Source: Bacillota bacterium
Lineage (GTDB): Bacteria; Bacillota; Clostridia; Peptostreptococcales; Anaerovoracaceae
Assembly (NCBI GenBank): GCA_017459895.1
Contig: JAFUCA010000026.1
Location: 1-64,000, forward strand
Direction: 5' to 3'
DNA: 64,000 bases
A model generated the notes under the pieces. The model did no database searches, was not told where the DNA came from, and saw only the letters and a program-made list of their open reading frames with translations. Numbering within the stretch: the stretch's first letter is position 1; each line of letters begins with the position of its first letter. The translations under genes and the position numbers were made by a program. Of this stretch, positions 6,046-61,781 are shown one piece after another.

Positions 6046-7169
6046 TGTTTCCGCCTCTTTTTGATCACAATGTTCAGGATCCCGCCGATCACGATGATGA
6101 TCAGCGCCAGGATCAGCACGTTGGTCGCCGCTTCCTGCGGGATCTGGCTCTTCGAACCGATGGAATCCTGATAGAAGGTCAGTTCGTATTCGATCTCCAC
6201 CGGATCTCCCATGGCCGTGGTATCGGCGATCACCGGCATGGGATCATCCATGACCGCAATGGGGATGGTGAAGGAGGAATTCCCTCCGTCCTTCGTCTCG
6301 TTCAGGTATTTCTCTCCGCCTACGATCATATAGTCGTAGTAGGTGCTGGACCACAGAAGCCTTGCCCAGGCTTTGCCGTCCTTCACGATCAGCCAGGTCG
6401 GAGACGAAACGGATGCCCTGCCGCTGCCCCCGGCCATATTGACCTGGATGGAGTACTCACCGTCCTCCATATTCAGCGGCACAGGATCATAGGAAGCCAG
6501 CGCACCCTCCCCGGAGTCCGCTCCAGCCTTTGCATCGGCGCCGGAAGACGCGTTCCCGCTGCCGGCCCCTTCACCGTTCTCATAGGCCTCCACCGCCTGA
6601 TCGATCTTGTCGTAGTCCGGCACCTGGATGGCGAGGGCCTCCTTCGGAAGGGACCCCGCCTCGAACAGGATCGTGCGGTCGTACCATTTCTTTTTTTTCT
6701 TACTGAAGGCGGCGCAGGAGATCTCCTCATTCAGGCCGCTGACCTCCATCTCAAAGCTGCCCTGTCCGGACCGTTCCTTCAGCTCCGTGTATTCCTCCAG
6801 GGGCGCTGCGGCGGCTTCCTGTGCCGTCCCCGGATAGACGAATTTGTAGCTGGTGCTGTACAGCGTGATATCGGCAGTCATCTTCCCGTCTTTGACCTTG
6901 AGCACGGCCTTCTCGATCCGAAAGAACGTGGAACTGGAGCGAACCTCGATCTTGTAATTGCCCTCATTCACATCCGCCGCCCGGATCGGCACCATGCCGT
7001 AGCTTTTGACCTCTTTCGAAGCGGCCATATCACCGGAGGTCGCCACCTGGTCGTAGCCCTCCGCCGCAAAAGCCGGACAGAAGCAGCCGAGCAGAAGCAC
7101 GAAAACAAGGGCTGTGATCAGCCTTCTGCCTTCGCGTCTCGTATGCACTTTGTCGGCTCGTCCTGTCAT
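6042..7169 (-). CDS. membrane-anchored surface protein with two NEAT-like beta-sandwich domains
   Basis: 375 residues: an N-terminal signal (hydrophobic stretch about 18-35, ending PAFA), two extracellular domains and a C-terminal transmembrane helix followed by KKRRKQ. Domain A (about 45-165) has the GNYKIEV start and the STSYKFVYPGTAQEA stretch. Domain B (about 245-345) has GEYSIQV, GGSGRASVSSPT, SSTYYDYMIV and the ADTTAMGDPVEIEYEL signature. Both domain types recur in the proteins at 10835, 20862 and 24253. The NEAT family binds heme or other tetrapyrroles, so a role in tetrapyrrole or metal capture is likely, but the relation to NEAT is my structural reading, not proven. The gene sits between repeat array A and sirC. 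Confidence 0.65.
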   Translation of the reverse strand: MTGRADKVHTRREGRRLITALVFVLLLGCFCPAFAAEGYDQVATSGDMAASKEVKSYGMVPIRAADVNEGNYKIEVRSSSTFFRIEKAVLKVKDGKMTADITLYSTSYKFVYPGTAQEAAAAPLEEYTELKERSGQGSFEMEVSGLNEEISCAAFSKKKKKWYDRTILFEAGSLPKEALAIQVPDYDKIDQAVEAYENGEGAGSGNASSGADAKAGADSGEGALASYDPVPLNMEDGEYSIQVNMAGGSGRASVSSPTWLIVKDGKAWARLLWSSTYYDYMIVGGEKYLNETKDGGNSSFTIPIAVMDDPMPVIADTTAMGDPVEIEYELTFYQDSIGSKSQIPQEAATNVLILALIIIVIGGILNIVIKKRRKQ

Positions 7170-7222
7170 TTCTGCTCCTTGTTATTTCCGGGCAACGTCA
7201 AATGGTTTCCCACATATCGCTT

Positions 7223-7490
7223 TTGTCACGCAAAGCCTATTTTTTAACTCCATGGTGACAATTTCTCTGATCGTTTGTCACGAAGGTCCCAAAAACTGCT
7301 CTTCCCGTGACAAACCGAGGGATCATTTGTCACGCGGAACATCTTTTTTGACACTACCGTGACAATTTCCTTTGAAAACAATTGTCTGGCATACCAGTTT
7401 TGTCACGGTGTTTCACTTTTTTGCTCTTCCTGTGACAATCCATTTTCTATTTTGTCATACAGGAGGTCTTTTTTACCCCTCCCGTGACAA
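7223..7490. repeat. repeat array A: five 39-bp TTGTCAC/GTGACAA inverted-repeat units
   Basis: Fills most of the 371-base gap between cbiK and the NEAT-like gene. Units run 7223-7261, 7275-7313, 7327-7365, 7400-7438 and 7452-7490. Each is exactly 39 bp with 7-bp arms; unit 5 has one changed arm base. Start-to-start distances are 52, 52, 73 and 52. The 25-bp interiors differ but tend to hold a run of T in the middle and end in pyrimidines. Arrays B (30372) and C (48238) are homologous. No ORF, promoter or known regulatory site explains it. Confidence 0.9.
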
Positions 7491-7540
7491 ACCTGGTTTT
7501 CTTGCAGCATCTGTTACTTCTGTTCACTGAGTTTCTCTAG

Positions 7541-8512
7541 TTATTTGATCCGCTCCGCTGCCCGGGCATGCCGCACCAGCATCTCCTGTACGGCGGGGTA
7601 CTCTCCCAGGCCCCGCAGCACAGAAACCACCGGGTGACCGGCCGCCTCCAGCCGGCTTTGCCAGGAATCCTCCTCCGGTCCTGCCATGTCGTTCTTCGCG
7701 TGATCTCCCGCCACGATCATCAGCGGCGCCAGGATCACTTCACCGGCGTGGGCCTGCATCTGCTCCAGCACATCCTCCAGCGTGGGCGTTCCTTCGACGG
7801 TGCCCACATACACGTTTTCACAGCCGACATTCCGAAATGCCTGCTGCATCTGGTCATAGATCCGGTTCGCTTCCGGCCTCTTCGCCGATCCGTGGCCCAT
7901 CAGCACCAGCGCCCTCGCGCCGGGGGCTCCGCCGGCGCCGGACGCTTCGCCGGCTCCCGGTTCCTCCGTCCGTTCCCCGGACAATTCCGCTCCCAGAAGC
8001 TGCTCCGCCAGGATCTTCGCCAGCTGCTCCCGGTCCTCCTCCGTGCTGAGCAAAGGCTGGCCAGCCCGAATACAATCAAACCGGCCGACCGCTTCCGAAA
8101 GAGCGGAAAGCATTCGGTCGTTTTCTGCTCCGGGGATCATATGGGTCGGCTGCACCAGCACGTCCCGGATCCCCTCCGCCTGCATTCGTTCCAGCGCTTC
8201 CTCCAGGGTGTCCGTATGGACCTGGTTCGCGGCGGGACCGACGGCGGAGTTCGCGGCGGGACCGACGGCGGAGTTCGCGGCGGGACCGTCCGCAGACTTC
8301 GCTGCGGACTCCGCCAGCCCCGCGGCATCTTCAGCTCCATCCCGGTCCCGCAGCCGCTTCACGATCATCCGGCTGGTCCATCCCCGGTAGAGTCTCCGGT
8401 CCGGGAAGGCCGCCGCCAGATGCTCCTCGATGGCGTCAATAGTCTTCTTTCTTGTTTCCTCATGGGTGGTTCCGAAGCTGACCACCAGCAGCGCCTTGTC
8501 CAGCCTTTGCAT
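7541..8512 (-). CDS. cbiK: sirohydrochlorin cobaltochelatase (anaerobic, cytosolic)
   Basis: Inserts Co2+ into sirohydrochlorin, committing it to cobalamin. The 323-residue protein begins with ALLVVSFGTTHEETRKKTI, typical of CbiK, and carries the active-site histidines in VQPTHMIPGAEND (about residue 135) and LVLMGHGSAKRPEANRIYDQ (about 213). It is longer than usual because of two low-complexity loops: about residues 75-97 (a 24-bp in-frame tandem repeat at 8225-8290) and about 180-205. There is no signal peptide, unlike the paralogue at 11783. A good Shine-Dalgarno (AGGAGGG) precedes the ATG, and the first codons coincide with a copy of the dispersed 11-mer. Confidence 0.93.
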   Translation of the reverse strand: MQRLDKALLVVSFGTTHEETRKKTIDAIEEHLAAAFPDRRLYRGWTSRMIVKRLRDRDGAEDAAGLAESAAKSADGPAANSAVGPAANSAVGPAANQVHTDTLEEALERMQAEGIRDVLVQPTHMIPGAENDRMLSALSEAVGRFDCIRAGQPLLSTEEDREQLAKILAEQLLGAELSGERTEEPGAGEASGAGGAPGARALVLMGHGSAKRPEANRIYDQMQQAFRNVGCENVYVGTVEGTPTLEDVLEQMQAHAGEVILAPLMIVAGDHAKNDMAGPEEDSWQSRLEAAGHPVVSVLRGLGEYPAVQEMLVRHARAAERIK

Positions 8513-15127: not shown

Positions 15128-15955
15128 CTATTTCACGATTTCTTCATATGTGGACGGATTTCTGTCCTTCAGCAGAACATAGTACCCCTCACGCAAAGGC
15201 TGGAGCTGATCCAGGTCCACAGCTGCTCTGATGATCTGCTCCTGATCTGCCGCCGCCGCGATGGGTCTTCCCAGCGGCCCCGAGATCCTGCTTCTGCCGA
15301 AGAAGCTGAGCTCTCTGTCTGTACCGACGTGATTGCAGGATGCCAGATAAACGACATTGTCGAAGGAGCGTGCCGTGTTGACGATCTCCCAGTCTCCCTC
15401 GTTCGGTTCCGTTTCCCACGCCGCAGGGGCCGCGATGATCTCCGCGCCCTTCAGTGCCAGGATCCTGGCCACTTCCGGATACGCCATATCCCAGCAGATC
15501 ATGAGGCCGATTCTGCCGATGGAGGTTTCATATACGTTGTATTCCGTTCCCTTCTCGAAAAATCTGGTTTCTTCTCCGTCCACCAGATGCGACTTCCGGT
15601 AGCACCCCAGGGGCCGGCCCTGATCGTCAATGAGCGCCGCGGAGTTGTACAGTACCGGCCGTCCATCTTTCATGCCCTGTTCCACAAATCCGTAAATGAG
15701 ATGGACCCCGTGCTTCTTCGCCTGCTCCGAAAGGATCTGTGCTGTATCCCCGTCCGGGAAGGGCTCCGCCAGGCTCTGATAGAGCTCCCCGCACTCGTAT
15801 CCCGTCACCGCCAGCTCCGGAAAAATGACCAGATCCGTATCTCCGCCGGTGACCGCTTCCTCCAGCATGGAAATCATCTTGCTGATATTCTGTTCTTTCG
15901 CTCCCAGCGCCGACTGCATCTGGCAGCAGGCGATGGTTATCTTTCTCTTATCCAT
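15128..15955 (-). CDS. carbon-nitrogen hydrolase (nitrilase superfamily)
   Basis: 275 residues from the ATG at 15955, preferred because GGAGG stands eight bases upstream and the chain then opens MDKRKITIACCQMQ, the usual first strand; 14 further in-frame codons upstream are unlikely to be used. The catalytic triad is present: Glu in VIFPELAVTGYE (about 45), Lys in CYRKSHLVDGEE (about 118) and Cys in IGLMICWDMAYPEVARIL (about 152). It cleaves a C-N bond in an amide, carbamoyl or nitrile compound. Linkage to the NCS1 permease suggests a catabolic or salvage pair. Confidence 0.9.
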   Translation of the reverse strand: MDKRKITIACCQMQSALGAKEQNISKMISMLEEAVTGGDTDLVIFPELAVTGYECGELYQSLAEPFPDGDTAQILSEQAKKHGVHLIYGFVEQGMKDGRPVLYNSAALIDDQGRPLGCYRKSHLVDGEETRFFEKGTEYNVYETSIGRIGLMICWDMAYPEVARILALKGAEIIAAPAAWETEPNEGDWEIVNTARSFDNVVYLASCNHVGTDRELSFFGRSRISGPLGRPIAAAADQEQIIRAAVDLDQLQPLREGYYVLLKDRNPSTYEEIVK

Positions 15956-16065
15956 TCTCCTTCCCTCCGATTCATCCATAGTATCTGCTTCCCGCATTGA
16001 TGTATAAGAGCAGTATACTGTATGTGTGAGAGGTTATCAATCTCATTCTGAAGAGCGATGCCAAA

Positions 16066-17402: not shown

Positions 17403-18569
17403 CTAAACACGTTCCAGTTTTCCCAGCCTTTCCGCCAGATCGATCAGATCCCGCATCCGGGCGTTCGTCGTTCCGATGGGAAACTCCGCTGCGATGACCC
17501 TCCCGCACTGCTCCACGCACTCCTTCGCTCTCGCAAAGGCTGGCTCTGCGATCTCCTCGAAGGGCGGGGTGGTGATCACCTCAGCCGCAAGAAGCCTTGC
17601 CAGCTGATAGTCGATGTCATTTTCGCTCAGTACACCGGCGATGAAGGGCGCGTTTTCCTTCTGCAGGCGCCGGTAAACGGGGATCCCGCTGCCCCCGGAG
17701 CTCAGCACCAGCACCCGGGGCGCCCTGCTCCCGGCATCTTCCTCCCGTCCGAAAGGAGCGCTGCCGCCAGCCTTTGCATCCCCTGCGGGCGCCGGAAGCT
17801 CGATGCTGCCGAACAGCGGATCGAAGAACCCGTTGTCCAGACTGTACAGCTCCCGGATCATATCCTCGTGGAAGATCTCCTCCGGAACGCCGTAGCGGTA
17901 GATCCGGTCGCCCTTCACGCAGATGATCCGGTCCGAGATCTTCTCCGCCAGATCGATCTCGTGCAGGGACATGATGACCGTGATCCCCTTCTTCTTCGCC
18001 ATGCTCCGCAGGATCGTCAGCAGCTCCAGCTTGTACCGGATGTCCAGAAACGACGTGGGCTCGTCCAGAATGATAATCTCCGGATCCTGGCAGATGGCCC
18101 GGGCCAGCAGGATCCGCTGCCGCTGTCCGTCGCTGATGGCATTGAAATCCTTCGGCCCCAGCTCCGTGGCGTGGACCACCGCCATTGCCTCGTCCACCAT
18201 GCGCTCATCTTCCTCCGTCAGCAGCCCCAGCTTGCCCGTATACGGGTAGCGGCCGCTGGCAACGATGTCATAGCAGGTCAGAAGATCGGTCTTGAGCCGC
18301 TCCGTGAGCACCACCGCCATCTTCTGGGACAGATCCCGGGCAGGCATCGAATGAAGATTCTGCTCATCGAAATAGACCTTGCCGCCGATCAGGGCCAGCT
18401 GACGGGTGATGCTCTTGAGGATCGTAGACTTGCCGGCGCCGTTGGGGCCGATCAGCGTGACGATATCCCCCTTCCGGATGTCGATGCAGATGTCCCGGAT
18501 CAGGGCCTTGCCGTTGTAGCCCACCGACAGGTCATCCATGCGGATGTAGGCTTTTTCGTTCTGACTCAT
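17403..18569 (-). CDS. ABC importer ATPase (FecE/BtuD type) with C-terminal extension
   Basis: 388 residues from the ATG at 18569, which overlaps the permease stop (ATGA); a longer reading upstream only mirrors the permease. Walker A GPNGAGKSTI (about 38), signature ISDGQRQRI (about 138) and Walker B IIILDEPTSFLD (about 158) are intact. Typical FecE/BtuD proteins end near residue 255; this one has about 130 more residues that begin after a Gly/Ala-rich linker and contain RVLVLSSGGSGIPVYRRLQ and a Rossmann-like pattern. The extra domain may sense a ligand or nucleotide. It powers the FecCD permease upstream in the unit. Confidence 0.9.
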   Translation of the reverse strand: MSQNEKAYIRMDDLSVGYNGKALIRDICIDIRKGDIVTLIGPNGAGKSTILKSITRQLALIGGKVYFDEQNLHSMPARDLSQKMAVVLTERLKTDLLTCYDIVASGRYPYTGKLGLLTEEDERMVDEAMAVVHATELGPKDFNAISDGQRQRILLARAICQDPEIIILDEPTSFLDIRYKLELLTILRSMAKKKGITVIMSLHEIDLAEKISDRIICVKGDRIYRYGVPEEIFHEDMIRELYSLDNGFFDPLFGSIELPAPAGDAKAGGSAPFGREEDAGSRAPRVLVLSSGGSGIPVYRRLQKENAPFIAGVLSENDIDYQLARLLAAEVITTPPFEEIAEPAFARAKECVEQCGRVIAAEFPIGTTNARMRDLIDLAERLGKLERV

Positions 18570-20869: not shown

Positions 20870-23800
20870 GGCTGATCTTTTCCTCTTTGTTCTTCTTGAT
20901 ATACTGATCAAACTGTTCTGCAGCTGCCTTCTCTTCCCCGGCGATCACGCCGTAGACCTTGACCCATTCCGCCGCCGCGAAGTTGGTCGCTTCCTGCTCC
21001 GAGCGGTCGATCATCATGGGAACCGACAGAGACGAATATCTGGTCTGCAGCTTCTGCAGGATCTTCTGCTGCTCTTCGGACAGCGCCTTATCCTCATCGG
21101 AGCTCTTCTTCGTCAGCTTCTTCGGCAGGATCTGCCCCGGCAGAATGACCAGATCCGCTTCCGCGCGGACGATATCGCGAAACTCGGGCGTCTCGTAATT
21201 GTCCTGGGTCAGGATCTTTTCTTTCTCCACGGCTTTGGCCGCCTTCGGATTGGTGATGTCTTCCGGATTCATACCGATGATGGCCACCGAATCCAGATGT
21301 CCGAGCTGTGTGATGGTATCCAGCGCCGCTTCCGATGCGATGTACGCATCCTTCACCGGCTTCGTTATTATAACACAATCCTTGTCCAGACCGGCGGGAA
21401 GCTCTGCTCCCTTCGGCACGATCAGGTAATTGACGACATTGTTCTGATACAGCTCGTTTGTGATCTCATTGTCCGATTTGGCGATGGGCTTTCCTTCCTC
21501 ATCGTATTCGATCTTCTGCTCCGCCGCTGTCGCATCAGTATCGCCGCCTGTTTCGGCCTCTGCCTCAGCCGCTTCCTGCGCCGTGGCATCCGCCGCATCC
21601 GCTTCCTCTGCAGCCGTCGGTTTTTCCTGACTGCTTACGATCTGATCCGCGATGGTCCCGGACGGCTCAGCCTTTGCACCGGCATCTCCAGCCTTTGCAT
21701 CGCTGTCCGACGCAGCGGCGTCCTTACCCGCCGTTTCTTTTTTCTCCAGAGCCGTATCGGTGCCCTGATCGATGCTGACCAGCGTGATGTCGTTCTCGTA
21801 GCGGAAAATCTTGAAATACTTCGCATACTTCACATTTTCCGTCCCCTTGACCTTCAGACCCAGAAGGTCCGGTGCCTTATCGGTCAGCTTCTTGGTGTTG
21901 GTCACATGTCCGTCGGTGCCCGCGGCAGCCTTTCTGCCCGCGCCGGCCCCGGCTTTATAAATGAAAATGTTATATTTGACCCAGTGGGGCTGGGACATGG
22001 CGGTCGTACGTCCGATGATGGTGTTGTTGGCGTTGAGCTTCACCGGAATGACGAACTTGGAGTTGCCGCCGCCCTGCTTGGAGTAGACCCGTCCGTTGGC
22101 CTTCAGGGAATCGTATTTGCTGCTGCCGAATTCGATGGTCGCGTATGCCTTGCCGCCGGTGACTGTGATCTTATTGCAGCGGATGTAGGCAAGCCGCCCG
22201 GAGCCTCCGCTCCAGCTGAACCGGTCCGGCGTATAGACGCCGTCCTTCAGGCTGGTGGAATTGTTGACCGCACTGGTGCTCTTGCTGGAATCGTCCTTCC
22301 ACTTGGAGACCTTGTCGGCTTTTTTGTTGTTCTTGAATTTCGTCTGGGTTCCGCTGGTCTTTTCGGATTCTTTTTTCTTCTTTCCGGTGGTGATGCTGGC
22401 GCCGCTGGAAGTCTTCTGGGCGTCCTTGCTGTAAAAGATGATCCACTTGTCCGGCCGCCAGGGATCGGTCTTGGGATCGCCGTCCGACTCGTATTTCTTC
22501 GAGTGCGGGGTGATGGTCAGCTTCTTGTCCAGCGCAGACACCGGAATGGTGAAGGTGTAGTAGCCGTTCACGATCCTGGCCTTGATCCAGTTGTTCTTGC
22601 CGGCCTTTTTCGCCTGCGCCGGCGTGCCCATGTAAACATAATCGTACCCATCGCCGGTCAGAGTGATGGTCGCCGTCATGGTCTTATCCTTATTGATCGT
22701 CAGGATCGTCCATGCCGGATCCGATTCCTTCGGATAGAGATAGAACATCTTCCGGTCGGTGGTGGCCTTGACCTTGTAGGTGCCGGCCGTCAGCGTCTGC
22801 CCTCCTGCCGGGCTCACCGGATCGGTCTGGCTCCCTGGATTTGCCGGTCCGCTGGGATCGGTCTGTCCGCCGGGAGCTGCCGGATCGTCGGAACCGGAGG
22901 AGCCGCTTTCCGGAAGGTCGGTGCTGTCGCTGATCTTCTCGGAGGATGCGTTCAGCGTCAAATGGTAGGTATAGTTGACCCAGTGGGGCGCCGACATGGC
23001 AGTCGTGCGGACCGCGCAGGGCTGATCCTGATTCAGCATCACTTCAGCGGTCACGGTCTGACTGCTGATGGGTGTCACATCCTTGCCGCAGGTGCCGGTT
23101 TTCGGATCGTAAAGCGCCGGCGTTTCGTCCGTGGACTCCGCCGTGCCCATATAAAGATGGGTCATGTTTGCGCTGCTGGCCTTGAGTACGGCATAGGCCT
23201 TGCCATTTTTGATAACGACCTTCTCGCAGGTCATGGTCGCCTTGCCGGTGCCGCCGGTGAAAGTGAAGCTGTCCGGCTTATAGGTGCCGTCCTCCAGACT
23301 GGCATCGCCCGTGCGGTTCTCTGCCTTCGCCGTGACGGTGATGGTGTAGTCGATCCAGTGGGCTTCCGACATCGCCGTCGTGCGCCCGCCCAGATCCATC
23401 TTGCTTCCGAGGCTGACCGGAATGGTCGCGATCATTCCGCTGCCATCCGCTTTCATCTGATAAACGCCCTTGCCCAGCTTGCCGCTGTCCGGATCATACA
23501 GGTCGGTATTAACGTCATCCGTATTCTTGTCCGAATCGATCTTGCCGGTGAACAGATGGGTGAAGTTCGTACTGCTGATCCGGATGACGGCTTTGGCCTT
23601 GCCGCCGGATACGGTGATCTTATCGCAGGAAAGCTTCGTCTTGCCGGTGCCCCCGGTGAAGGTGAAGCTTTCGGGCTGATAGTCTCCGTCGGCCAGATCG
23701 GTCGCGTTATTCACTTCTTTGTAGACCGCATTGCCGGCAGAAGCAGCTTTTGCCGCCCCCTTCTTTTTGACGTCCGCTGCGTCTTTGGAATCCTCCGTGT

Positions 23801-24089
23801 CCCTGACTTCCGCGTTTCCATCCGAATCCCCGTGGGACTGCGGCTGCTGAGCATCTGTTTCAGAGGCCTTCGGCTCCTCCGGCGCCCTGGTTTCTTCCGG
23901 CGCCTTCGTCTGCTCGACGGTCTTTTCTTCCTTCGGCGGCTCGGTCTCCTTCTCGACGACCTTCTCTGCCTGCTCCTTTTCTCCGGGATCCGCCTCCGCT
24001 GCATCTTCTGCAAAGGCTGGTACCGAGAAACTCATGGTCACCATGATTGCCAGCATGATTGCTAACAGCTTGCTTCGAACACTCCTCAT
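20862..24089 (-). CDS. giant exported protein: four NEAT-like domains fused to a BtuF-like binding domain
   Basis: 1075 residues from the ATG at 24089, which opens a signal peptide (MRSVRSKLLAIMLAIMVTMS, cleavage after AFA about 27). Order: acidic low-complexity linker (about 28-120); B domains about 125-265 and 270-400, each with FTFTGGTGK and RTTAMS.HW; a Pro/Gly linker; an A domain about 450-575 (MFYLYPKESDP, DYVYMGTPAQAKKAG); a Lys/Ser-rich linker; a third B domain about 620-730 (RTTAMSQPHWVKYNIF); and about 760-1075 a class III solute-binding domain (GLDKDCVIITKPVKDAYIAS, MMIDRSEQEATNFAAAEWVK). No lipobox or C-terminal anchor is seen. It probably captures a ligand and hands it to the FecCD importer. 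Confidence 0.75.
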   Translation of the reverse strand: MRSVRSKLLAIMLAIMVTMSFSVPAFAEDAAEADPGEKEQAEKVVEKETEPPKEEKTVEQTKAPEETRAPEEPKASETDAQQPQSHGDSDGNAEVRDTEDSKDAADVKKKGAAKAASAGNAVYKEVNNATDLADGDYQPESFTFTGGTGKTKLSCDKITVSGGKAKAVIRISSTNFTHLFTGKIDSDKNTDDVNTDLYDPDSGKLGKGVYQMKADGSGMIATIPVSLGSKMDLGGRTTAMSEAHWIDYTITVTAKAENRTGDASLEDGTYKPDSFTFTGGTGKATMTCEKVVIKNGKAYAVLKASSANMTHLYMGTAESTDETPALYDPKTGTCGKDVTPISSQTVTAEVMLNQDQPCAVRTTAMSAPHWVNYTYHLTLNASSEKISDSTDLPESGSSGSDDPAAPGGQTDPSGPANPGSQTDPVSPAGGQTLTAGTYKVKATTDRKMFYLYPKESDPAWTILTINKDKTMTATITLTGDGYDYVYMGTPAQAKKAGKNNWIKARIVNGYYTFTIPVSALDKKLTITPHSKKYESDGDPKTDPWRPDKWIIFYSKDAQKTSSGASITTGKKKKESEKTSGTQTKFKNNKKADKVSKWKDDSSKSTSAVNNSTSLKDGVYTPDRFSWSGGSGRLAYIRCNKITVTGGKAYATIEFGSSKYDSLKANGRVYSKQGGGNSKFVIPVKLNANNTIIGRTTAMSQPHWVKYNIFIYKAGAGAGRKAAAGTDGHVTNTKKLTDKAPDLLGLKVKGTENVKYAKYFKIFRYENDITLVSIDQGTDTALEKKETAGKDAAASDSDAKAGDAGAKAEPSGTIADQIVSSQEKPTAAEEADAADATAQEAAEAEAETGGDTDATAAEQKIEYDEEGKPIAKSDNEITNELYQNNVVNYLIVPKGAELPAGLDKDCVIITKPVKDAYIASEAALDTITQLGHLDSVAIIGMNPEDITNPKAAKAVEKEKILTQDNYETPEFRDIVRAEADLVILPGQILPKKLTKKSSDEDKALSEEQQKILQKLQTRYSSLSVPMMIDRSEQEATNFAAAEWVKVYGVIAGEEKAAAEQFDQYIKKNKEEKISHE

Positions 24090-24186
24090 TTCTGTCGTTC
24101 CTTTCGTTGTCTTCCTCAAACCGATTATACCAGAACAGCGCACCTGCAGGATGCCCTCTTCTGATGCAATCCGCAAAACCATGATA

Positions 24187-24252: not shown

Positions 24253-26121
24253 TTACTTGACCTTGACGGTCTTGGCCTTGGACCACTTGGTGTAGACCAT
24301 CTGGTTATTGATCTTCTTGAAGCCTCTGATCTTTACTGTGCACTTCTTGCCCTTCTTCAGCTTCTTGATCACTTTCTTCGTGGTGGAATTCTTCGTGATC
24401 TTCACGGTCTTGGCCTTGGCTCCGGCCACCTTGTAGGAAATCTCATAGCCGGCGACGTTCGCGTCCTTCTTCCAGGTAACCGTGACCTTCTTCTTGCCAG
24501 CCTTTGCCTTCTTCAGCGTGATCGTGGATGCCTTGATCTTGCTGATCTCGGCGTTGGTCCTGGCCTGCGCATCCTTCTTATCGATCGCGGTCTTGGCATC
24601 GCTTACCGTCTTGATGTCTGCCGCCAGCGTCTCGTCCGCCTTCTGCGCATCTGTCAGCTTGGCAATGGCTGCCAGAGCGGCCTGTACCTTGTCCTTGTTG
24701 GTCGGATCGGCCTTGGCTGCTGCGATGGCTGTCTGGGCAGCTTCATAAATCTCGATCTGCTCTTTTGCCGTATTTACTTCTGTAATGTCTGCCGCCAGTT
24801 CTTCTTTCTGCGCGTCGGTCAATTTCGCGATAGCATCCAGTGCAGCCTGCACCTTGTCCTTATTGGTCGCATCGGCCTTGGCTGCTGCGATGGCTGTCTT
24901 AGCATCCTCCAGATCAATCGCCTCTTTTGCCGTATTTACTGCAGCGATGTCTTCGGCCAGTGCTTCTTTCTGCGTGTCGGTCATTTTCGCAATAGCATCC
25001 AGTGCTTTCTGAACCTTTTCTTTGTTTGTCGGGTCAGCTTTAGCCTCTTCAAGTACTGCCTGAACTTCCAGCAGATCTGCTTCAGCGATCATCCGTGATG
25101 CCAACTCCTGATCCTCTGTGTCCGCTGCAATGTCTCTGATATCCTCGATCAGTTCCGGTGTGTTGGTGATCGTCCATGTCAATATTCTCTGCCACGATGC
25201 ACTAGCTTCGTCAATTACATATTCTTTCGTATCATCATTTACTTTTTTCAGATCATTGTATACTCCAATATGGATGGGAACTCCTATTTGTTCGATCGGA
25301 ACGTTAAATTCAAACATGCTCCAATAATAAGGGATCTGGCCATAATCCTCACCTTTGTAGGTGTAGTTATCCTTCGCTGTTCCAACTGTTACATCAATTC
25401 CTTCTGCGTATTGCTCCGCATCTTTCAATTCAAATTGTGTCAGGGAAACCGCGAATTTAGAGTATCTGTTCGATGTCATCGGTTTTGTAGTGACTTCCAC
25501 CGTAATCGTCCCGTCCTCATTGACATACAGTTCCGTCCCCTGCTCAGCCAGCGAGACCATTCCCATGCTGGAAATAACCTTTTCAGACTTTTCCTGATTC
25601 TGGGTTGGCTTCCAATCCGGCTCGTCCATTTCGATCAGATAACTATAGTTGACCCATTTATAGCTGCTTTTCATATATGTCCGGACTGCAATTGATTCTT
25701 CGCCGTTGATGTCGACCGGCACAACAGCAGTCAGAGTATCTTCGGTATCAACCGCATAGACACCTTCTCCACAATTGCCTGTTTCATCAACCAACGAAGG
25801 TACATCATCAGAGCTATCAAGTTCGCCTGTGTACAGATGTGTCTTTGTGTTTTTATCAACCTTGAAAACTCCCATTGCCTCTGCATCAGTAACGATTACT
25901 TTCTCAAGCGAGAGAGCTGTTGCCACAGATCCGTCTGATTTCTTCAATAATGTAAAAGTGTAATCTTCAGCTGAATACTCACCGTCTTCTAATGTCGTTT
26001 CATTGTCAACGAACACCTCTGCTTCGCCCTCGTCGTTTTCGTCTGCAAACACTGTACTTCCCATGGCAAATACCATTGACAGGGACAGTACGGCTGCAAG
26101 CAGCCACTTCATTTTTTTCAT
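24253..26121 (-). CDS. exported repeat protein with NEAT-like N-terminus and fibronectin-like tail
   Basis: 622 residues. A GTG 18 codons upstream is possible, but the ATG opens a normal signal peptide (MKKMKWLLAAVLSLSMVFAM, cleavage near VFA) and has GAGAGGA about ten bases upstream. Residues about 32-175 resemble the B domain (LEDGEYSAEDYTFTLL, THLYTGELDSSDDVP, RTYMKSSYKWVNYSYLIEM); about 185-320 is a second beta domain. About 330-530 holds four helical repeats of roughly 45-48 residues with KADPTNKDKVQAAL and AKLTDAQK. About 535-622 is a fibronectin III-like domain rich in Lys. It is the first gene after the riboswitch. Likely cell-surface; binding partner unknown. Confidence 0.7.
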   Translation of the reverse strand: MKKMKWLLAAVLSLSMVFAMGSTVFADENDEGEAEVFVDNETTLEDGEYSAEDYTFTLLKKSDGSVATALSLEKVIVTDAEAMGVFKVDKNTKTHLYTGELDSSDDVPSLVDETGNCGEGVYAVDTEDTLTAVVPVDINGEESIAVRTYMKSSYKWVNYSYLIEMDEPDWKPTQNQEKSEKVISSMGMVSLAEQGTELYVNEDGTITVEVTTKPMTSNRYSKFAVSLTQFELKDAEQYAEGIDVTVGTAKDNYTYKGEDYGQIPYYWSMFEFNVPIEQIGVPIHIGVYNDLKKVNDDTKEYVIDEASASWQRILTWTITNTPELIEDIRDIAADTEDQELASRMIAEADLLEVQAVLEEAKADPTNKEKVQKALDAIAKMTDTQKEALAEDIAAVNTAKEAIDLEDAKTAIAAAKADATNKDKVQAALDAIAKLTDAQKEELAADITEVNTAKEQIEIYEAAQTAIAAAKADPTNKDKVQAALAAIAKLTDAQKADETLAADIKTVSDAKTAIDKKDAQARTNAEISKIKASTITLKKAKAGKKKVTVTWKKDANVAGYEISYKVAGAKAKTVKITKNSTTKKVIKKLKKGKKCTVKIRGFKKINNQMVYTKWSKAKTVKVK

Positions 26122-27669: not shown

Positions 27670-27702
27670 CTTCTGTTCTCCTCGCATTCTCCAGCCTTTG
27701 CA

Positions 27703-29178: not shown

Positions 29179-30329
29179 ACCAGTTCCTCTTTGATTGCCT
29201 CGATCAATCGTATGTTTTCTTCCTGTGTTCTCACTGCGATCCGGTACCAGCCTTCGCCAAGTCCCGGGTAATTGCTGCAGTTTCGGATCAGGATCCCGCG
29301 GCGGCGAAGCTGCCGGTCCAGACCCGGCCATGCGCGAAACAGCAGGTAGTTTGCCTCACCGTAAACGGTGGCCGGATTTCCTGTGATCGACTGTTCTGCG
29401 ACCGGCTGTCCTGCGGCCGGCTGTTCCTGAGCTCCGCTGTCCCCCCGGCTGAGCAATTCCGCCAGCCTCGCTTTCAGCCAGGGACGCTGCTGCTCCGTGA
29501 TCTTCAGTCCCCGTTTCACGTGATCCGTATCCTCCAGCGCTGCGATCCCCGCCGCCTGGGCAAGGGATGAGACGTTCCAGGGAGGGCCGGCGCGGCGAAG
29601 TCTCTCCGTCATCTCCGCGTCCCCGCAGAGGCAGTAGCCCAGCCGGACGCCCGCCATGCCGTAGAGCTTCGTGAACGCTTTCATGATAATAAGGCTGCCG
29701 GTTTCGGTCCGCAGCTGCGGCACCATGGTATGGGCCTGCGGATCTGTCAGAAATCCGTTGAAGCACTCATCGATCACGAGATCCGTTCCCGCCCTGCGGC
29801 AGTGATCACAGATCCTTTGCAGCAGCCGGTGATCCGTCGTGATCCCGGTCGGGTTGTTGGGCTCGCATAGAAATACGGCGTCCGTATCTTCGCCGATCGC
29901 GTCCAGGATATCCTCACCGATCTGAAATCCCCGGCTCTCCCGCAGCATATACCGCCGGATCTGCCAGCCGTTTTCTGCAAACGCCGTCTCATATTCAGAA
30001 AAGGTCGGTGCCGTCACCAGCAAGACCGGGGCCTTCGGTGGCTCCGGCTTCAGCGCCTGAGCCAGCCGGAAGATGATATCCGCGGCACCATTGCCACAGA
30101 AGATCCGATCCTGCGGGATCCCTTCCGCTTCCGCCAGCCTTTGCGTAAGAGTCCGGCAGAGGGGATCCGGATAACGGTCCGCCCGGGCCGCCGCCTCTGC
30201 GATCGCCGCTGCCGCCGCCGGTGAGATCCCCAGCGGATTGACATTCATGCTGAAATCCAGCGGCTGCCTGCCATATTCCATTTCAAACCCGGCCCAGTCG
30301 CCGCCATGGGTCAGCGCATTCTCGCTCAA
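29175..30329 (-). CDS. cobD: L-threonine-O-3-phosphate decarboxylase-like PLP enzyme
   Basis: 384-residue fold-type I aminotransferase relative, close to histidinol-phosphate aminotransferases, as CobD of Salmonella. Marks: NVNPLGISPAAAAAIAEA (about 30-47), CEPNNPTGITTDHRLL (about 155), and the PLP Lys in IMKAFTKLYGMAGVRLGYC (about 220). Inside the cbi cluster its expected product is (R)-1-amino-2-propanol phosphate for CbiB. A low-complexity insert (about 310-330, QEQPAAGQPVAEQS) lies in a surface loop. An aminotransferase of histidine synthesis cannot be excluded by sequence alone, but context makes it unlikely. Note that cobD here follows Salmonella usage. Confidence 0.88.
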   Translation of the reverse strand: MSENALTHGGDWAGFEMEYGRQPLDFSMNVNPLGISPAAAAAIAEAAARADRYPDPLCRTLTQRLAEAEGIPQDRIFCGNGAADIIFRLAQALKPEPPKAPVLLVTAPTFSEYETAFAENGWQIRRYMLRESRGFQIGEDILDAIGEDTDAVFLCEPNNPTGITTDHRLLQRICDHCRRAGTDLVIDECFNGFLTDPQAHTMVPQLRTETGSLIIMKAFTKLYGMAGVRLGYCLCGDAEMTERLRRAGPPWNVSSLAQAAGIAALEDTDHVKRGLKITEQQRPWLKARLAELLSRGDSGAQEQPAAGQPVAEQSITGNPATVYGEANYLLFRAWPGLDRQLRRRGILIRNCSNYPGLGEGWYRIAVRTQEENIRLIEAIKEELV

Positions 30330-36164: not shown

Positions 36165-36172
36165 ATCCTTCC

Positions 36173-38047: not shown

Positions 38048-39249
38048 TTCTGTCGTTCCTCCCACATGCTTAATATCTGCTGCCCCGGCTCTGTCATGCC
38101 GAGCAGTCCGTATACATTCGAAAACATCAGTGCTCCGATCCGGCAGCTGCCCGCCGCGCGGTGCTCCAGCTTTTCCTGGATCGCCTTCATCATGCTCCCT
38201 ATCACAGGCTCCCGAAGTCCCTCTTCCTCCAGCAGCTCGATGCAGGCATCGGTGGTCGCCGCCTCCATCAGCTTCCTGCAAAGGCTGGTGCTCCCGCCGC
38301 AGATGGCGGCATGGGCGCAGAAGACCTCGTTCCTGCCATCCGCGTATTTCGAGTGGGTGTTCATGATTCCGGCGGCCACCTTGGACAGCTTGCCCGCGTG
38401 GGCCACCAGAAGCACCGTATCGACGGGACTTCCGGCGATCATATCCAGGGTCTCTCCGAGAAAATTGGAGAACTTCAGCACCGGGATCCCCAGGCTGTCC
38501 AGATCGTGTCCCTGGATGTAGTCGGCGCCGTAGTTGCCGGGCGCCAGGATCAGATCCGTCGATTCCGCGGCGATCTGCTTCAGCTCGACTTCGATGGTAT
38601 CCACCAGCGCCTGCTCGCTCATGGGTTCCACGATCCCGGTGGTGCCCAGGATCGAGATGCCCCCCACGATGCCGAGCTTGGGGTTGAAGGTCTTCTGCGC
38701 GGCAGCTTCCCCTTCCGGAACGGAAATGATCACCTCGATGCCGCCCCGCCGCGGATCCGCCCCGTTCAGACCGATTCCTTCCGGATCCAGCTCCTCAAGG
38801 ACGGCGCGCACCGCCTCTTCGATCATTCTCCGGGGGCCGGAATTGATGGCCGCGTTTCCCACCGGCTGATCCAGGCCCGGCTTTGTCACCCGGCCGACAC
38901 CCCGGCCTCCGTCGATGTGCACCCCCGGCTCGCCGCAGCGCTTCACATCCGCCCGGATCAGCATTCCGTCGGTCACATCCGCATCATCGCCGGCGTCCTT
39001 CGGAATCGCCGCCCAGGCACAGGACGGCTTGTTCAGGCTGCGCTCCGCCCCGGACGGCTCCAGGCCGAACTCCGTGACCGGAACCTCTACGGGAATGCCC
39101 TTGCCAGTCATCAGCCGGACCGTCTGCGGCGCTTTCCCGCATAACAAAAGCCGCGTTGCCGCCGCTGCCGCAAGAGCCGCGCAGGTTCCTGTCGTATAGC
39201 CGCATCGCAGCATTTTTGTCCCGCTTCGGGTATAGTGCTCAAATGCCAT
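38044..39249 (-). CDS. cbiD: cobalt-precorrin-5B C1-methyltransferase
   Basis: 401 residues. N-terminal LRCGYTTGTCAALAAAAATR is the classic CbiD opening; GIGRVTKPGL-like GVGRVTKPGLDQPVGNAAIN (about 120-139) and ISILGTTGIVEPMSE (about 205-220) follow. First gene of the main cobalamin unit, behind riboswitch 3 and its terminator. Carries a dispersed 11-mer copy near its 3' end (38278). Confidence 0.97.
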   Translation of the reverse strand: MAFEHYTRSGTKMLRCGYTTGTCAALAAAAATRLLLCGKAPQTVRLMTGKGIPVEVPVTEFGLEPSGAERSLNKPSCAWAAIPKDAGDDADVTDGMLIRADVKRCGEPGVHIDGGRGVGRVTKPGLDQPVGNAAINSGPRRMIEEAVRAVLEELDPEGIGLNGADPRRGGIEVIISVPEGEAAAQKTFNPKLGIVGGISILGTTGIVEPMSEQALVDTIEVELKQIAAESTDLILAPGNYGADYIQGHDLDSLGIPVLKFSNFLGETLDMIAGSPVDTVLLVAHAGKLSKVAAGIMNTHSKYADGRNEVFCAHAAICGGSTSLCRKLMEAATTDACIELLEEEGLREPVIGSMMKAIQEKLEHRAAGSCRIGALMFSNVYGLLGMTEPGQQILSMWEERQK

Positions 39250-43708: not shown

Positions 43709-43755
43709 AGTATTGATCGCCGTATTTCTTCGGCGTTCCTCCTGTCGTAAATAGT

Positions 43756-43772
43756 ATACCCCCGTAGGGTAT
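43756..43772. promoter_or_regulatory. CsoR-type operator
   Basis: The 17-bp pseudo-palindrome ATACCCCCGTAGGGTAT lies about 50 bases upstream of the csoR start. Its TACCC.....GGGTA core is the known form of CsoR sites in Gram-positive bacteria, so autoregulation is likely. Confidence 0.8.
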
Positions 43773-43783
43773 TTGTCAATACC

Positions 43784-43847
43784 CATGCAAAGGCTGGTGC
43801 CCAAGGGGTTGCCAGCTTTTGCGGCAGGCTGCGCCAGCCTTTGCATG
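43784..43847. repeat. inverted pair of the dispersed 11-mer between MATE gene and csoR
   Basis: CATGCAAAGGCTGG and CCAGCCTTTGCATG face each other with about 36 bases between; the interior also has GCCAGCTTTTGCGGC, a degraded copy. The stem begins four bases after the MATE stop codon, where a terminator is expected, and is the only tight dyad of the 11-mer in the window. Confidence 0.8.
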
Positions 43848-48567: not shown

Positions 48568-48658
48568 TTTTTCTGTATCATAGCACACATTCCCGCAGCC
48601 GTCAACCTTGAAAACCTCCAGCCTTTGCATTAAAATACAGATTGTGAGGTACGAACGA

Positions 48659-59710: not shown

Positions 59711-59741
59711 AACCGGCTCCTTCCCAGCCTTTGCATGATCT

Positions 59742-59770
59742 ATATTAAATGAACGTTCAGTTATTGTCAA
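59742..59770 (-). promoter_or_regulatory. tetR promoter with internal operator
   Basis: On the minus strand -35 TTGACA (59765-59770) and -10 TAATAT (59742-59747) are 17 bases apart. The perfect 10-bp palindrome TGAACGTTCA (59750-59759) sits between them, well placed for repression by the TetR protein. Confidence 0.8.
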
Positions 59771-59820
59771 GGACTTTTCTGGATAAACCAGGTCCACATT
59801 ATAAAATCGGTGTGGTGAAA

Positions 59821-59841: not shown

Positions 59842-59848
59842 CATAACT

Positions 59849-61669
59849 ATGCTGAAGATATTACTGAAATACTGGCACTTCGCACTGCTTGCCATACTGT
59901 TCATGATCTGCGAGGTCGCCGTCGATATGATCCAGCCGAAGCTGATGGCGACGATCGTCGACGACGGCATCCTCGGGCTGTCCGGAAACGGCACGCCGGA
60001 TCTGCAGCTGATCTCCTCCACCGGTCTGATCATGCTGCTGGTCGTGCTGGCCGGGGGCCTGTCGGGGATCCTCAGCGGCACCATGGCCAATTTCTGCAGC
60101 CAGCGATTCGGCAACGACATCCGCAAACGATGCTTTGAACGGATCATGCATCTGTCCTTCGAGCAGACCGACGCCTTCACCACGGGCTCGCTGATCACCC
60201 GGATCACCAACGATGTGACCCAGCTGGAGCGTCTGGTCCAGCAGTCGGTGCGCGGATTCGTACGCTGCATCATGTTCATGGTGGTCGGCACCATTACTCT
60301 GCTCTCTCTGAACCAGCATTTTCTGGTGATCCTGGCCATCGCCTTCCCGCTGGTCCTGATCGATATCATTTTCATTCTGTGGCGGACCAATCCGCTGTTC
60401 ATGCGCCTGCAGAAGCGGATCGACAGCATGAACACGGTTATTCGAGAGAACATTAACGGCGCCCGCCTGGTCAAGGCCTTCATTCAGGAGGAGCGGGAGG
60501 AAGCCCGTTTCGGGAAAGCCAACCAGGCGCTGGTGAAGACCCAGCTGCGCATCCTGATCCTGATGAGCTACCTGCGGCCGGTCATGAACATCATTCTGAA
60601 CCTGGCCACCGTCGCTCTGATCTGGATCGGCGCCATTCACGTCCAGAGGGGCGGGATGCAGCCCGGCGAGGTCATGGCGGCCGTCACCTATATTTCCCAG
60701 ATCCTGAACGGGATGATGATGCTGGCCATGATCTTTCAGACGCTTTCCCGGGGCACCGCCTCCTACCGGCGCCTTAAGGAGGTCTTCGATACGGAGCCGG
60801 TGATCCGGGACGGAGCCGGCGCGGAGGCCGGACTGATCGGCGATCATTACAACGGAGAAGGCGGCGCTGTTGAATTTCGGGGCGTGACCTTCACCTATCC
60901 GAAGCGGACGGACGACCGGGCGGAGCTGACCCGGTCCCTGTCGCCGGATCCCTCCGGCAGCGCTCCGGAGGAGGAGCTGGGGGAAGACGGCAATGTCCTT
61001 CGGGGGATCGATCTGCGGATCGAATCCGGTGAGACGCTGGCCATCGTCGGCGCCACCGGCAGCGGCAAGACCAGCCTGGTCAATCTGATCCCCCGCTTCT
61101 ATGACGCCACCGAGGGAAACGTTCTGGTGGGCGATAAGGATGTGCGGGACTATCTTTTGACCGAGCTTCGGGAGAAGGTCGCCTTCGTACCCCAGAAAAA
61201 CGAACTGTTCAGCACGAACATCCGGGATAACATCCGCATCGGCCGACCCGATGCCACAGAAGAAGAGATCCGGTTCGCCGCCCGCTGCGCTCAGGCGGAT
61301 GACTTCATCCTGCAGCAGCCGGAGGGCTACGATACCGCCGTTGCTGAAGGAGGCATGAGCCTGTCCGGCGGCCAGCGGCAGAGGATCGCCATCGCCCGGG
61401 CGCTGCTGAAGTCCTCCGACATACTGATCCTGGACGACTCCACCAGCGCACTTGATCTGAAAACCGAAGCCGCCTTCTACGACGCGCTGCATGAGCATTT
61501 TGACTCCCTGACCTGCATCGTCATCGCCCAGCGGATCACCACCGCGCGGAGGGCGGACCGCATCGCGGTCCTGGACCACGGCAGGCTGGTGGGATGCGGT
61601 ACGCACGAGGAACTGCTGGACGGATGTCCGGTCTATCAGGACATCTGCTCCTCCCAGATGGGTGCTTAG
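59849..61669 (+). CDS. ABC exporter half with degenerate ATP site
   Basis: 606 residues: six transmembrane helices (about 1-320) and a nucleotide-binding domain. Walker A GATGSGKTSLV (about 400) and signature SLSGGQRQRIAIARALL (about 505) are intact. Walker B reads ILILDDSTSALD, with Asp where the catalytic Glu should be, and the H-loop reads CIVIAQRITTA, with Gln for His. This is the pattern of the non-catalytic half of heterodimeric exporters such as TM287/288 and LmrCD. A Ser/Pro/Glu-rich insert lies before the nucleotide domain (about 355-385). Partner: the gene at 62617. Confidence 0.93.
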   Translation: MLKILLKYWHFALLAILFMICEVAVDMIQPKLMATIVDDGILGLSGNGTPDLQLISSTGLIMLLVVLAGGLSGILSGTMANFCSQRFGNDIRKRCFERIMHLSFEQTDAFTTGSLITRITNDVTQLERLVQQSVRGFVRCIMFMVVGTITLLSLNQHFLVILAIAFPLVLIDIIFILWRTNPLFMRLQKRIDSMNTVIRENINGARLVKAFIQEEREEARFGKANQALVKTQLRILILMSYLRPVMNIILNLATVALIWIGAIHVQRGGMQPGEVMAAVTYISQILNGMMMLAMIFQTLSRGTASYRRLKEVFDTEPVIRDGAGAEAGLIGDHYNGEGGAVEFRGVTFTYPKRTDDRAELTRSLSPDPSGSAPEEELGEDGNVLRGIDLRIESGETLAIVGATGSGKTSLVNLIPRFYDATEGNVLVGDKDVRDYLLTELREKVAFVPQKNELFSTNIRDNIRIGRPDATEEEIRFAARCAQADDFILQQPEGYDTAVAEGGMSLSGGQRQRIAIARALLKSSDILILDDSTSALDLKTEAAFYDALHEHFDSLTCIVIAQRITTARRADRIAVLDHGRLVGCGTHEELLDGCPVYQDICSSQMGA

Positions 61670-61685
61670 GCAGACTGAACAGACT

Positions 61686-61781
61686 TTGCGCGGCGCCCGA
61701 CCAGCCTTTGCGCGAAGTGTGAGCAGTCCTTGCGCGAGGTGTGAACCGTCCTTGCGCAAAGTGTGCGCAGTCCTTGCGCGG
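61686..61781. repeat. five-copy 22-bp tandem repeat
   Basis: TTGCGCG-type cores start at 61686, 61708, 61730, 61752 and 61774, exactly 22 apart, with GTGTGA.CAGTC between. The second copy contains one dispersed 11-mer (61701). It begins 17 bases after the exporter stop and leads straight into the 147-bp array. Confidence 0.85.

What the first reader, a model, noticed from the sequence alone, without database searches (positions are those of the whole stretch)
6523..61711. An 11-mer, CCAGCCTTTGC, occurs exactly at least 20 times in both orientations
Exact copies start at 6523, 8050, 8500, 15193, 17533, 17767, 21688, 24010, 24497, 27691, 30134, 31418, 32432, 35950, 38278, 43787, 43834, 48618, 59724 and 61701. 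Chance expects well under one in 64 kb. Thirteen read CCAGCCTTTGC and seven GCAAAGGCTGG on the plus strand. They lie in genes in different frames (AKAG, QRL, PAF) and in gaps, and many extend to CCAGCCTTTGCAT. One-base variants are also frequent. This resembles DNA-uptake sequences of Neisseria or Pasteurellaceae, or a Chi/KOPS-type chromosome motif, none of which I know with this sequence in Bacillota.
Basis: seen in the sequence. Interest (0 to 1): 0.9.

Follow-up and report, generated by a model that had tools for sequence, protein, structure and literature searches.

The report
Likely DNA-uptake tag in Clostridia
Some uncultured Clostridia carry hundreds of copies of a short DNA word, in species-specific dialects, that looks like the self-tag two families of Gram-negative bacteria use to recognise their own DNA, something apparently not known before in this phylum.

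Summary
CCAGCCTTTGC occurs 21 times in the window and 601 times in the 2.5-Mb genome, 301 forward and 300 reverse; the reversed word occurs 3 times. Codon usage does not explain it: 94 copies in genes against 1.45 after synonymous shuffling, in all six frames. Four other species of the genus carry the same word; 26 further species carry TGCCTTTGC. Unbiased word counts show more variants sharing the end TTTGC. No such density was seen in 282 genomes outside the genus. Sites are kept between species above background (10 of 16 against about 12%), and word type follows a ComEC tree. ComEC, ComEA, DprA and a pilus-like locus are present. Best reading: a DNA-uptake sequence with dialects, working like Neisseria DUS or Haemophilus USS, arisen independently in Bacillota. 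Uptake and receptor are not shown; pilus presence correlates only weakly, and motif-free relatives also have the competence genes.

The parts
3473..3483 (+).
   Evidence: exact match; frame
6523..6533 (+). CCAGCCTTTGC copy in gene 6042-7169(-), reads AKAG
8050..8060 (-). CCAGCCTTTGC copy in gene 7541-8512(-), sense, reads QPLL
8500..8510 (+). CCAGCCTTTGC copy over the first codons of 7541-8512(-), reads MQRL
15193..15203 (-). CCAGCCTTTGC copy in gene 15128-15997(-), sense, reads LQPLR
17533..17543 (-). CCAGCCTTTGC copy in ORF 17403-18983(-); identical at the aligned place in 3 of 4 aligned genomes (G011, G010, G001; not G045)
17767..17777 (+). CCAGCCTTTGC copy in ORF 17403-18983(-); the flanks differ between species, but 3 of 5 aligned genomes (G010, G001, G045) hold a copy at or near this place
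21688..21698 (+). CCAGCCTTTGC copy in gene 20862-24182(-); kept in G011, the only genome aligned here
24010..24020 (-). CCAGCCTTTGC copy in gene 20862-24182(-), reads PAF; kept in G011, the only genome aligned here
24497..24507 (+). CCAGCCTTTGC copy in gene 24253-26175(-), reads AKAG; kept in G011, the only genome aligned here
27691..27701 (+). CCAGCCTTTGC copy between genes 26989-27687(-) and 27703-29331(-); not kept in the 4 aligned genomes
30134..30144 (+). CCAGCCTTTGC copy in ORF 29175-30329(-); not kept in the 2 aligned genomes
31418..31428 (-). CCAGCCTTTGC copy in gene 30662-31657(-), reads SLC; not kept in the 4 aligned genomes
32432..32442 (+). CCAGCCTTTGC copy in gene 31654-33117(-), reads AKAG; not kept in the 4 aligned genomes
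35950..35960 (+). CCAGCCTTTGC copy in gene 35403-36176(-), reads AKAG; identical in G001, G010, G011; TGCCTTTGC at the same place in G045; neither word in G008 and G013
38278..38288 (-). CCAGCCTTTGC copy in gene 38044-39249(-), reads SLC
43787..43797 (-). CCAGCCTTTGC copy, one arm of an inverted pair; inside called ORF 43376-43846(-) but probably upstream of that gene's true start (by eye)
43834..43844 (+). CCAGCCTTTGC copy, other arm of that pair; the stretch folds to a long hairpin, -36.9 kcal/mol, z -2.8
48618..48628 (+). CCAGCCTTTGC copy at the start of a called gene 48608-49033(+), perhaps upstream of the true start
59724..59734 (+). CCAGCCTTTGC copy at the 5' end of gene 59144-59797(-), probably upstream of the true start (by eye)
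61701..61711 (+). CCAGCCTTTGC copy just downstream of gene 59849-61669(+)

Best explanation
CCAGCCTTTGC is a species-clade dialect of a DNA-uptake sequence. The cell's surface DNA-binding apparatus (a ComG/type IV-like pilus or an associated pilin, then ComEA and ComEC) would bind free DNA better if it carries the word, so DNA of the same species is taken up preferentially. Recombination of such DNA makes the word accumulate over the genome wherever the protein sequence tolerates it, on both strands. The receptor's preference has drifted between species, giving dialects (CCAGCCTTTGC, TGCCTTTGC, AAGCCTTTGC, GGATTTTGCG and mixtures) that share the 3' core TTTGC. Shown: genome-wide excess, independence of codon use, strand and frame neutrality, site conservation, dialects that follow a ComEC tree, competence genes in the genome. 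Inferred: that the word acts at uptake, what binds it, and the drive that spreads it.
For: 601 copies, 301/300 by strand, reversed word 3. In genes 94 copies against 1.45 +/- 1.13 in 100 synonymous shuffles; six frames 10/16/19 sense and 24/6/19 antisense; 25 of 119 in the 10% of DNA outside called genes, p=0.0003. Poisson-like spacing (CV 0.99) and no strand runs. Same word 234-337 times in 4 other species; TGCCTTTGC >=150 times and >=4x the reversed word in 27 of 49 species, one of them G045, which also has CCAGCCTTTGC; further variants by unbiased word counts. Density 216-373 per Mb in the 8 motif-bearing genomes of the genus in the order-wide draw, at most about 95 per Mb in 282 genomes outside the genus (WGCCTTTGC). 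Site identity 10 of 16 against 11-13% of background 11-mers, p=2e-6; at 35950 one species has the other dialect at the same place. Motif-free and motif-bearing genomes separate in a ComEC tree with 100/99 support, the CCAGCCTTTGC species in it (4 of 5) grouping together at 89/84. ComEC in 18 of 21 genomes, DprA in 45 of 49, ComEA-type HHH_3 matches in 20 of 21; in this genome a T2SSF-T2SSE pilus-like locus. Published uptake sequences show the same marks: 9-12 bp, hundreds to thousands of copies, dialects with a fixed inner core following phylogeny (passages of PMC12616744; abstract of PMC3630211).
Against: No uptake or binding experiment exists; the organisms are known here from draft assemblies. 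Competence genes and a homologous pilus-like locus also occur in motif-free relatives. A strong (non-Tad-type, classed by hand) T2SSF match is found in 21 of 31 genomes with one of the two words and 8 of 18 others, p=0.14; G006 (91% complete) has the word and no T2SSF match, G021 (96%) and G030 (98%) only Tad-type ones. No ComEC match in G010 and no ComEA-type match in G011, both motif-bearing but under 80% complete. No receptor candidate stands out. The ComEA tree is less simple than the ComEC tree. Inverted pairs, common in Neisseria terminators, are not in excess: 2 gaps under 100 bp, 2.8 expected. Four of the ten sites tested (27691, 30134, 31418, 32432) are not kept in any aligned relative. 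The papers seen report no uptake word outside the two Gram-negative families.
Confidence: 0.72

Rival explanations
1. Binding site of a chromosome-organising or segregation protein (SMC loader, nucleoid-associated or division-site protein) that needs hundreds of sites and whose specificity has drifted between species.
For: Genome-wide spread, both strands, conserved sites, clade restriction would fit a DNA-binding protein of any kind.
Against: Known systems of that sort recalled here (matS, Noc sites, parS) are palindromes in tens of copies, unevenly placed; this word is asymmetric, about 600 copies, randomly spaced. Dialect change within one group is the hallmark described for uptake words.
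Confidence: 0.1
2. Chi- or KOPS-like polar signal for AddAB/RecBCD or FtsK.
For: Hundreds of copies spread over the chromosome. The window's contig alone is uneven, 17 plus against 7 minus.
Against: No polarity overall: 301 against 300 copies genome-wide, neighbours on the same strand in 38 of 97, contig C6 (same sign of GC skew as the window's contig) 20 against 21. 11 bp is longer than known Chi or KOPS words (recalled).
Confidence: 0.02
3. Word made frequent by mutation, repair or methylation bias, like the cyanobacterial HIP1 octamer.
For: HIP1 is another genome-wide over-represented word of debated cause (recalled; its paper's title is in the reference list of PMC1939737).
Against: HIP1 is a palindrome; this word is not, and the changing part is the 5' half while TTTGC stays. 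Copies persist within diverging flanks, as at 17767. No methylation data were available.
Confidence: 0.07
4. Codon or peptide bias (repeated AKAG, MQRL and similar) or a dispersed mobile repeat.
For: Antisense phase 0 (AKAG) is the commonest single frame, 24 of 119.
Against: Synonymous shuffling leaves 1.45 of 94; all six frames and intergenic DNA hold copies; flanks beyond the 11-13 bp show no shared sequence, so no mobile unit.
Confidence: 0.02

Closest known systems
DNA uptake sequence (DUS) of Neisseriaceae and its dialects
   Same: 10-12 bp contiguous asymmetric word, many copies, dialects with a fixed inner core that follow phylogeny (abstract of PMC3630211; passages of PMC12616744).
   Different: Different word (DUS GCCGTCTGAA), different phylum, no excess of terminator-type inverted pairs, no ComP-like receptor identified; uptake not tested.
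Uptake signal sequence (USS) of Pasteurellaceae
   Same: 9-12 bp, at least 600 copies in H. influenzae, two dialect types (passages of PMC13192263 and PMC12616744).
   Different: USS is AAGTGCGGT with AT-rich regions downstream; here no such flanking regions.
HIP1 of cyanobacteria
   Same: Genome-wide over-represented short word of unsettled function (recalled).
   Different: Octameric palindrome (title in the reference list).
Chi / KOPS
   Same: Many dispersed copies.
   Different: Those are strand-polarised (recalled); this is not.

Membership tests
DUS/USS-type uptake sequence (functional class) | Short non-palindromic word in hundreds of copies on both strands without polarity | tested here: met
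   601 copies, 301/300; 38 of 97 neighbours on the same strand
DUS/USS-type uptake sequence (functional class) | Excess not due to codon use; present in all frames and between genes | tested here: met
   94 against 1.45 in synonymous shuffles; six frames plus 25 intergenic of 119
DUS/USS-type uptake sequence (functional class) | Dialects with a conserved inner core that follow phylogeny | tested here: met
   the ComEC tree holds 18 of 49 genomes and the CCAGCCTTTGC group's own support is 89/84; the ComEA tree is less clear
DUS/USS-type uptake sequence (functional class) | Organism has a DNA-uptake machine (pilus, ComEA, ComEC, DprA) | tested here: met
   genes found in the window's own genome; also met by motif-free relatives, so not discriminating
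DUS/USS-type uptake sequence (functional class) | Inverted pairs in excess as terminator hairpins (common, not essential) | tested here: not met
   2 gaps under 100 bp in the contigs examined, 2.8 expected
DUS/USS-type uptake sequence (functional class) | Sequence-specific receptor such as ComP | tested here: inconclusive
   small proteins of the pilus-like locus had no pilin Pfam hit; one is DUF4860; no specificity data
DUS/USS-type uptake sequence (functional class) | Preferential uptake or transformation of DNA carrying the word | not testable with these tools
   needs experiment
Neisseriaceae DUS or Pasteurellaceae USS (by descent) | The same word family (GCCGTCTGAA; AAGTGCGGT) | tested here: not met
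   word differs; nearest named relatives are Clostridia-type MAGs
Chi/KOPS | Strand polarity along the replichore | tested here: not met
HIP1-type word | Palindromic octamer | tested here: not met
   word is asymmetric; HIP1 form from a reference title and recall

The most novel reading that the evidence does not exclude
A third, independent origin of self-specific DNA uptake, and the first in a Gram-positive lineage: one genus of uncultured Clostridia has evolved an uptake word with the 3' core TTTGC that has split into at least four dialects among its species, so that sex by transformation is partitioned by dialect without an outer membrane being involved.
Probability: 0.65. Interest if true: 0.93.

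Novelty: new variant of a known kind. Interest (0 to 1): 0.87.

Why it matters
[quoted passage not shown] An uptake word in Bacillota would show that the outer membrane is not needed for the trait, give an independent case for the molecular-drive model of how uptake words accumulate, and offer a dialect series inside one genus in which receptor and word can be matched. It would also say that these uncultured bacteria are naturally transformable and tell which DNA they accept.

Tried and rejected
Chi/KOPS: rejected for lack of polarity. Codon or peptide bias: rejected by synonymous shuffles. Mobile repeat: flanks are not shared. Terminator element: close inverted pairs are not in excess, though the two seen form stable hairpins. 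ComEA as an obvious receptor: present with its usual SLBB-HHH layout in motif-free genomes too. Pilus presence as predictor: weak, 21 of 31 against 8 of 18. A first version of the gene calls missed overlapping genes and overstated intergenic copies (31 of 119); it was redone (25 of 119), and the frame and shuffle numbers cited are those. The gene assignments of single window copies come from one search, which used the first version; three copies it called intergenic (17533, 17767, 30134) lie in ORFs and are listed so. Words repeated in L061, L066, L068 and L109 (GGATTCGGC) turned out to be mostly clustered within about 1 kb of each other, probably inside one gene, DnaJ-like by eye. Four gaps over 9 kb without a perfect copy in contig C6 include a microcompartment-like gene cluster and a 2671-aa surface protein (names by eye), suggestive of depletion in accessory DNA; but one of these stretches (L016) holds several near-matches, and no systematic test was made. 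The paper search for the words themselves found only unrelated papers among the 15 of 23 listed. Structure prediction of the small pilus-locus proteins was not attempted, because loci from the genome search and the fetch from genomes are not on that tool's list of allowed sources. A wider reading of the order-wide count by its ratio to the reversed word was dropped: that word holds CG pairs and is rare in AT-rich genomes (for example G105, 261 against 8 in 5.8 Mb), so density was used instead.
Full report
OBSERVATION. The window holds 21 exact copies of CCAGCCTTTGC, 14 on the plus strand and 7 on the minus strand; shuffles give 0.03. It is the most frequent 11-mer of the window. In the whole genome (2,495,951 bases, 55 contigs) there are 301 + 300 copies, one per 4.15 kb, while the same letters read backwards occur 2 + 1 times.

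ANATOMY. In 452 kb of this genome the word is bounded sharply: of 206 places with GCCTTTGC, 83% have A just before, 92% C before that and 69% C before that; after it A is favoured (55%), and beyond that no position stands out strongly. So the unit is (C)CAGCCTTTGC(A). The commonest one-base variant is CCAGCTTTTGC, 30 copies against 124. In the contigs examined for order, neighbouring sites share a strand in 38 of 97 cases (p=0.04 towards alternation), gaps have mean 3.5 kb and coefficient of variation 0.99, and 2 gaps are under 100 bp against 2.8 expected. The window's contig alone has 17 plus and 7 minus copies; contig C6 has 20 and 21. The two close pairs are inverted and fold to stable hairpins, one in the window at 43787-43844.

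NOT CODON USE. With improved gene calls (370 genes, 433 kb), 119 copies divide into sense frames 10/16/19, antisense 24/6/19 and 25 between genes, which make up 10% of the DNA (p=0.0003). Shuffling synonymous codons within each gene leaves 1.45 +/- 1.13 copies (maximum 5 in 100 shuffles) where 94 are observed. The gene calls come from a simple script, not a standard gene finder.

WHO HAS IT. Among the 49 species-level genomes of the genus that are held, five hold CCAGCCTTTGC in hundreds: the window's own (601) and G001, G010, G011, G045 (311, 308, 337, 234). G012 has 29, the rest 0 to 19, and 32 genomes of other families of the order 0 to 5. TGCCTTTGC, by contrast, is at control level in the own genome (45 against 56) but reaches at least 150 copies and four times the reversed word in 27 species, up to 622; G045 has both words. 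Together 31 of 49 species carry one word or the other by this criterion; G032 and G033, and weakly G034, among the other 18 have words of their own. In an even draw of 297 genomes and 135 genera of the order (15 of them from this genus, own included), WGCCTTTGC reaches 373 per Mb in the own genome and 216 to 338 per Mb in the seven other genomes of the genus that bear a word (G003, G004, G006, G008, G013, G014, G030); the seven without are at 28 to 60 per Mb, and the 282 genomes outside the genus at about 95 per Mb at most (G328, 190 in 2.0 Mb, reversed word 119). Of 22 named public genomes, reached through 22 of the 80 Lon homologue loci, one is enriched: the MAG behind CAMOZS010000137.1 (SRR873601_bin.129), 654 copies in 1.7 Mb against 61. 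The titles of the Lon relatives are uncultured Clostridiales, Lachnospiraceae, Oscillospiraceae, 'Mogibacterium sp.' and similar MAGs, many with ruminant-gut sample names; NCBI places Mogibacterium in Bacillota, Clostridia, Anaerovoracaceae. The genus itself was not named by the tools, so its placement in Clostridia is inferred from these relatives and its habitat is not known.

DIALECTS. Word counts without any prior word, against a third-order Markov model, put members of this family at or near the top in the word-bearing genomes sampled: G000 CAGCCTTTGC 155/1.5 (observed/expected); G008, G007, G038, G004, G013 TGCCTTTGC; G003 TTGCCTTTG 34/0.6; G033 AAGCCTTTGC 17/0.3; G030 GCCTTTGC plus GGATTTTGCG 12/0.2; G032 a mixture with GGCTTTTGCA and AGGGTTTTGC. 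G034 shows a weak TAGCCTTTGC. In G022, G023, G024, G031, G037 and G041 the best words are unrelated and weaker (the strongest CATTGGCA in G022, 21/3.8). Synonymous shuffles support the others too: G008 46 against 6.3, G007 39 against 3.2, G003 31 against 1.7, G033 14 against 0.9, while the motif-free G037 gives 2 against 2.2. The 3' core TTTGC is constant in these words; the 5' half changes.

PHYLOGENY AND SITE CONSERVATION. In a ComEC tree (19 rows from 18 genomes; G010 had no ComEC match) the five motif-free genomes and the motif-bearing ones separate with 100/99 support, and the CCAGCCTTTGC species G011, G000, G045, G001 group together (89/84), next to TGCCTTTGC species. The ComEA tree (19 genomes) does not show this so simply: the CCAGCCTTTGC species sit on a long branch of 1.26, and G019, motif-free by count, joins the TGCCTTTGC side with 87/91. 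In a 20-kb stretch compared with six relatives, 10 of 16 aligned places in the four other CCAGCCTTTGC species are identical, against 11-13% of all 11-mers in the same alignments (p=2e-6; G011 5 of 6, G001 2 of 2, G010 2 of 3, G045 1 of 5); in the two TGCCTTTGC species 0 of 6 are. At 35950 the own genome, G001, G010 and G011 have CCAGCCTTTGC, G045 has TGCCTTTGC at the same place, and the TGCCTTTGC species G008 and G013 have neither. At 17767 copies sit at or near the same place although the flanks do not align. Four of the ten sites are not kept in any aligned relative. The p-value treats places as independent, which related species are not.

MACHINERY. ComEC (PF03772) is found in 18 of 21 genomes tried; in the own genome a DNA polymerase III delta gene lies 3.3 kb downstream. 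DprA is found in 45 of 49. HHH_3 matches occur in 21 of 21, ComEA-type ones (short frames) in 20 of 21, not in G011; SLBB-HHH frames were read in the 19 that were fetched. At C34 of the own genome lies a locus of transglutaminase-like lipoprotein, T2SSF, a 104-aa small membrane protein, a DUF4860 protein, two more small single-helix proteins and a T2SSE ATPase, flanked by Hpt, GGDEF and EAL signalling genes; the same kind of order is read by eye in G001, G010, G011, G013, G004, G008, G014, G031, G037, G041 and G019 (in some masked by longer antisense frames of the listing, in G010 cut by the contig end). The small proteins tried have no pilin hit in Pfam. G041, motif-free, has in addition a canonical type IV pilus locus, one protein with the N_methyl signature. 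A strong, non-Tad-type T2SSF match, classed by hand, exists in 21 of 31 genomes with one of the two words and 8 of 18 others (p=0.14), so the pilus alone does not predict the motif. G006 (91% complete) has the word but no T2SSF match; G021 (96%) and G030 (98%) have only Tad-type ones. Other MAGs without a match are 74-84% complete.

MECHANISM. The pattern fits uptake words: a receptor on the uptake apparatus prefers DNA with the word, word-bearing fragments recombine into the chromosome more often, and the word spreads by this bias until it is limited by protein sequence. That accounts for both strands, all frames, random spacing, conservation of places, and dialects that change with the receptor. 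Steps shown: the sequence facts. Steps inferred: binding, uptake, drive. Rivals are a chromosome-organising protein or a HIP1-like bias; neither has direct support here, but they are not excluded. Chi and KOPS are contradicted by the absence of polarity.

LITERATURE. Seen as passages: PMC12616744 (only two families known to discriminate at binding; dialects and cores), PMC13192263 (USS 9-12 bp, at least 600 copies), PMC5397411 (in two Veillonella strains no word of 10 bp or more occurs 100 times), PMC5031613, PMC1939737, PMC13020248, PMC1852404; PMC3630211 as abstract and outline. Eight paper searches were made; as far as titles and starts of abstracts show, none listed an uptake word in Bacillota. 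The library lacks most subscription papers and preprints, so absence from print is not proved.

VERDICT. A real, dialect-forming genome-wide word restricted, in the genomes searched, to one genus; most probably an uptake sequence, in a phylum where the papers seen report none. It works like DUS/USS by the sequence tests that could be run, except inverted pairing; it is not a member of either by descent.

Noticed in passing
window 61785-62573: Tandem array of a 147-bp unit, 5.4 copies, 90% match, preceded by a 22-bp array at 61708-61780 whose start overlaps the copy of the word at 61701-61711.
   Followed up: partly
L299-L302 against L303-L317 (ComEA loci): ComEA of the CCAGCCTTTGC species sits on a long branch (1.26 changes per column) with longer glycine-rich linkers; might reflect a change of receptor preference or an exchange of the gene.
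   Followed up: partly
L177:7062-11891: A compact pilus-like locus (transglutaminase lipoprotein, T2SSF, DUF4860, small membrane proteins, T2SSE) without recognisable pilins, shared by motif-bearing and motif-free species.
   Followed up: partly
L186:5377-14514: G041, a motif-free species, has a separate canonical type IV pilus locus with an N_methyl pilin, ATPase-like genes, a T2SSF protein and a peptidase-like gene (names partly by eye).
   Followed up: no
genome G045: Carries both words in hundreds (234 and 441); either a transition state or a mixed bin (7% contamination listed).
   Followed up: no
window 20862-26175: Two large secreted proteins with repeated domains of the haem/iron-transport kind (by eye), near cobalamin and haem synthesis genes (by eye).
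   Followed up: no
L011:556-13976: A microcompartment-like gene cluster (by eye) lies in a 13.9-kb stretch of contig C6 without any perfect copy of the word.
   Followed up: partly
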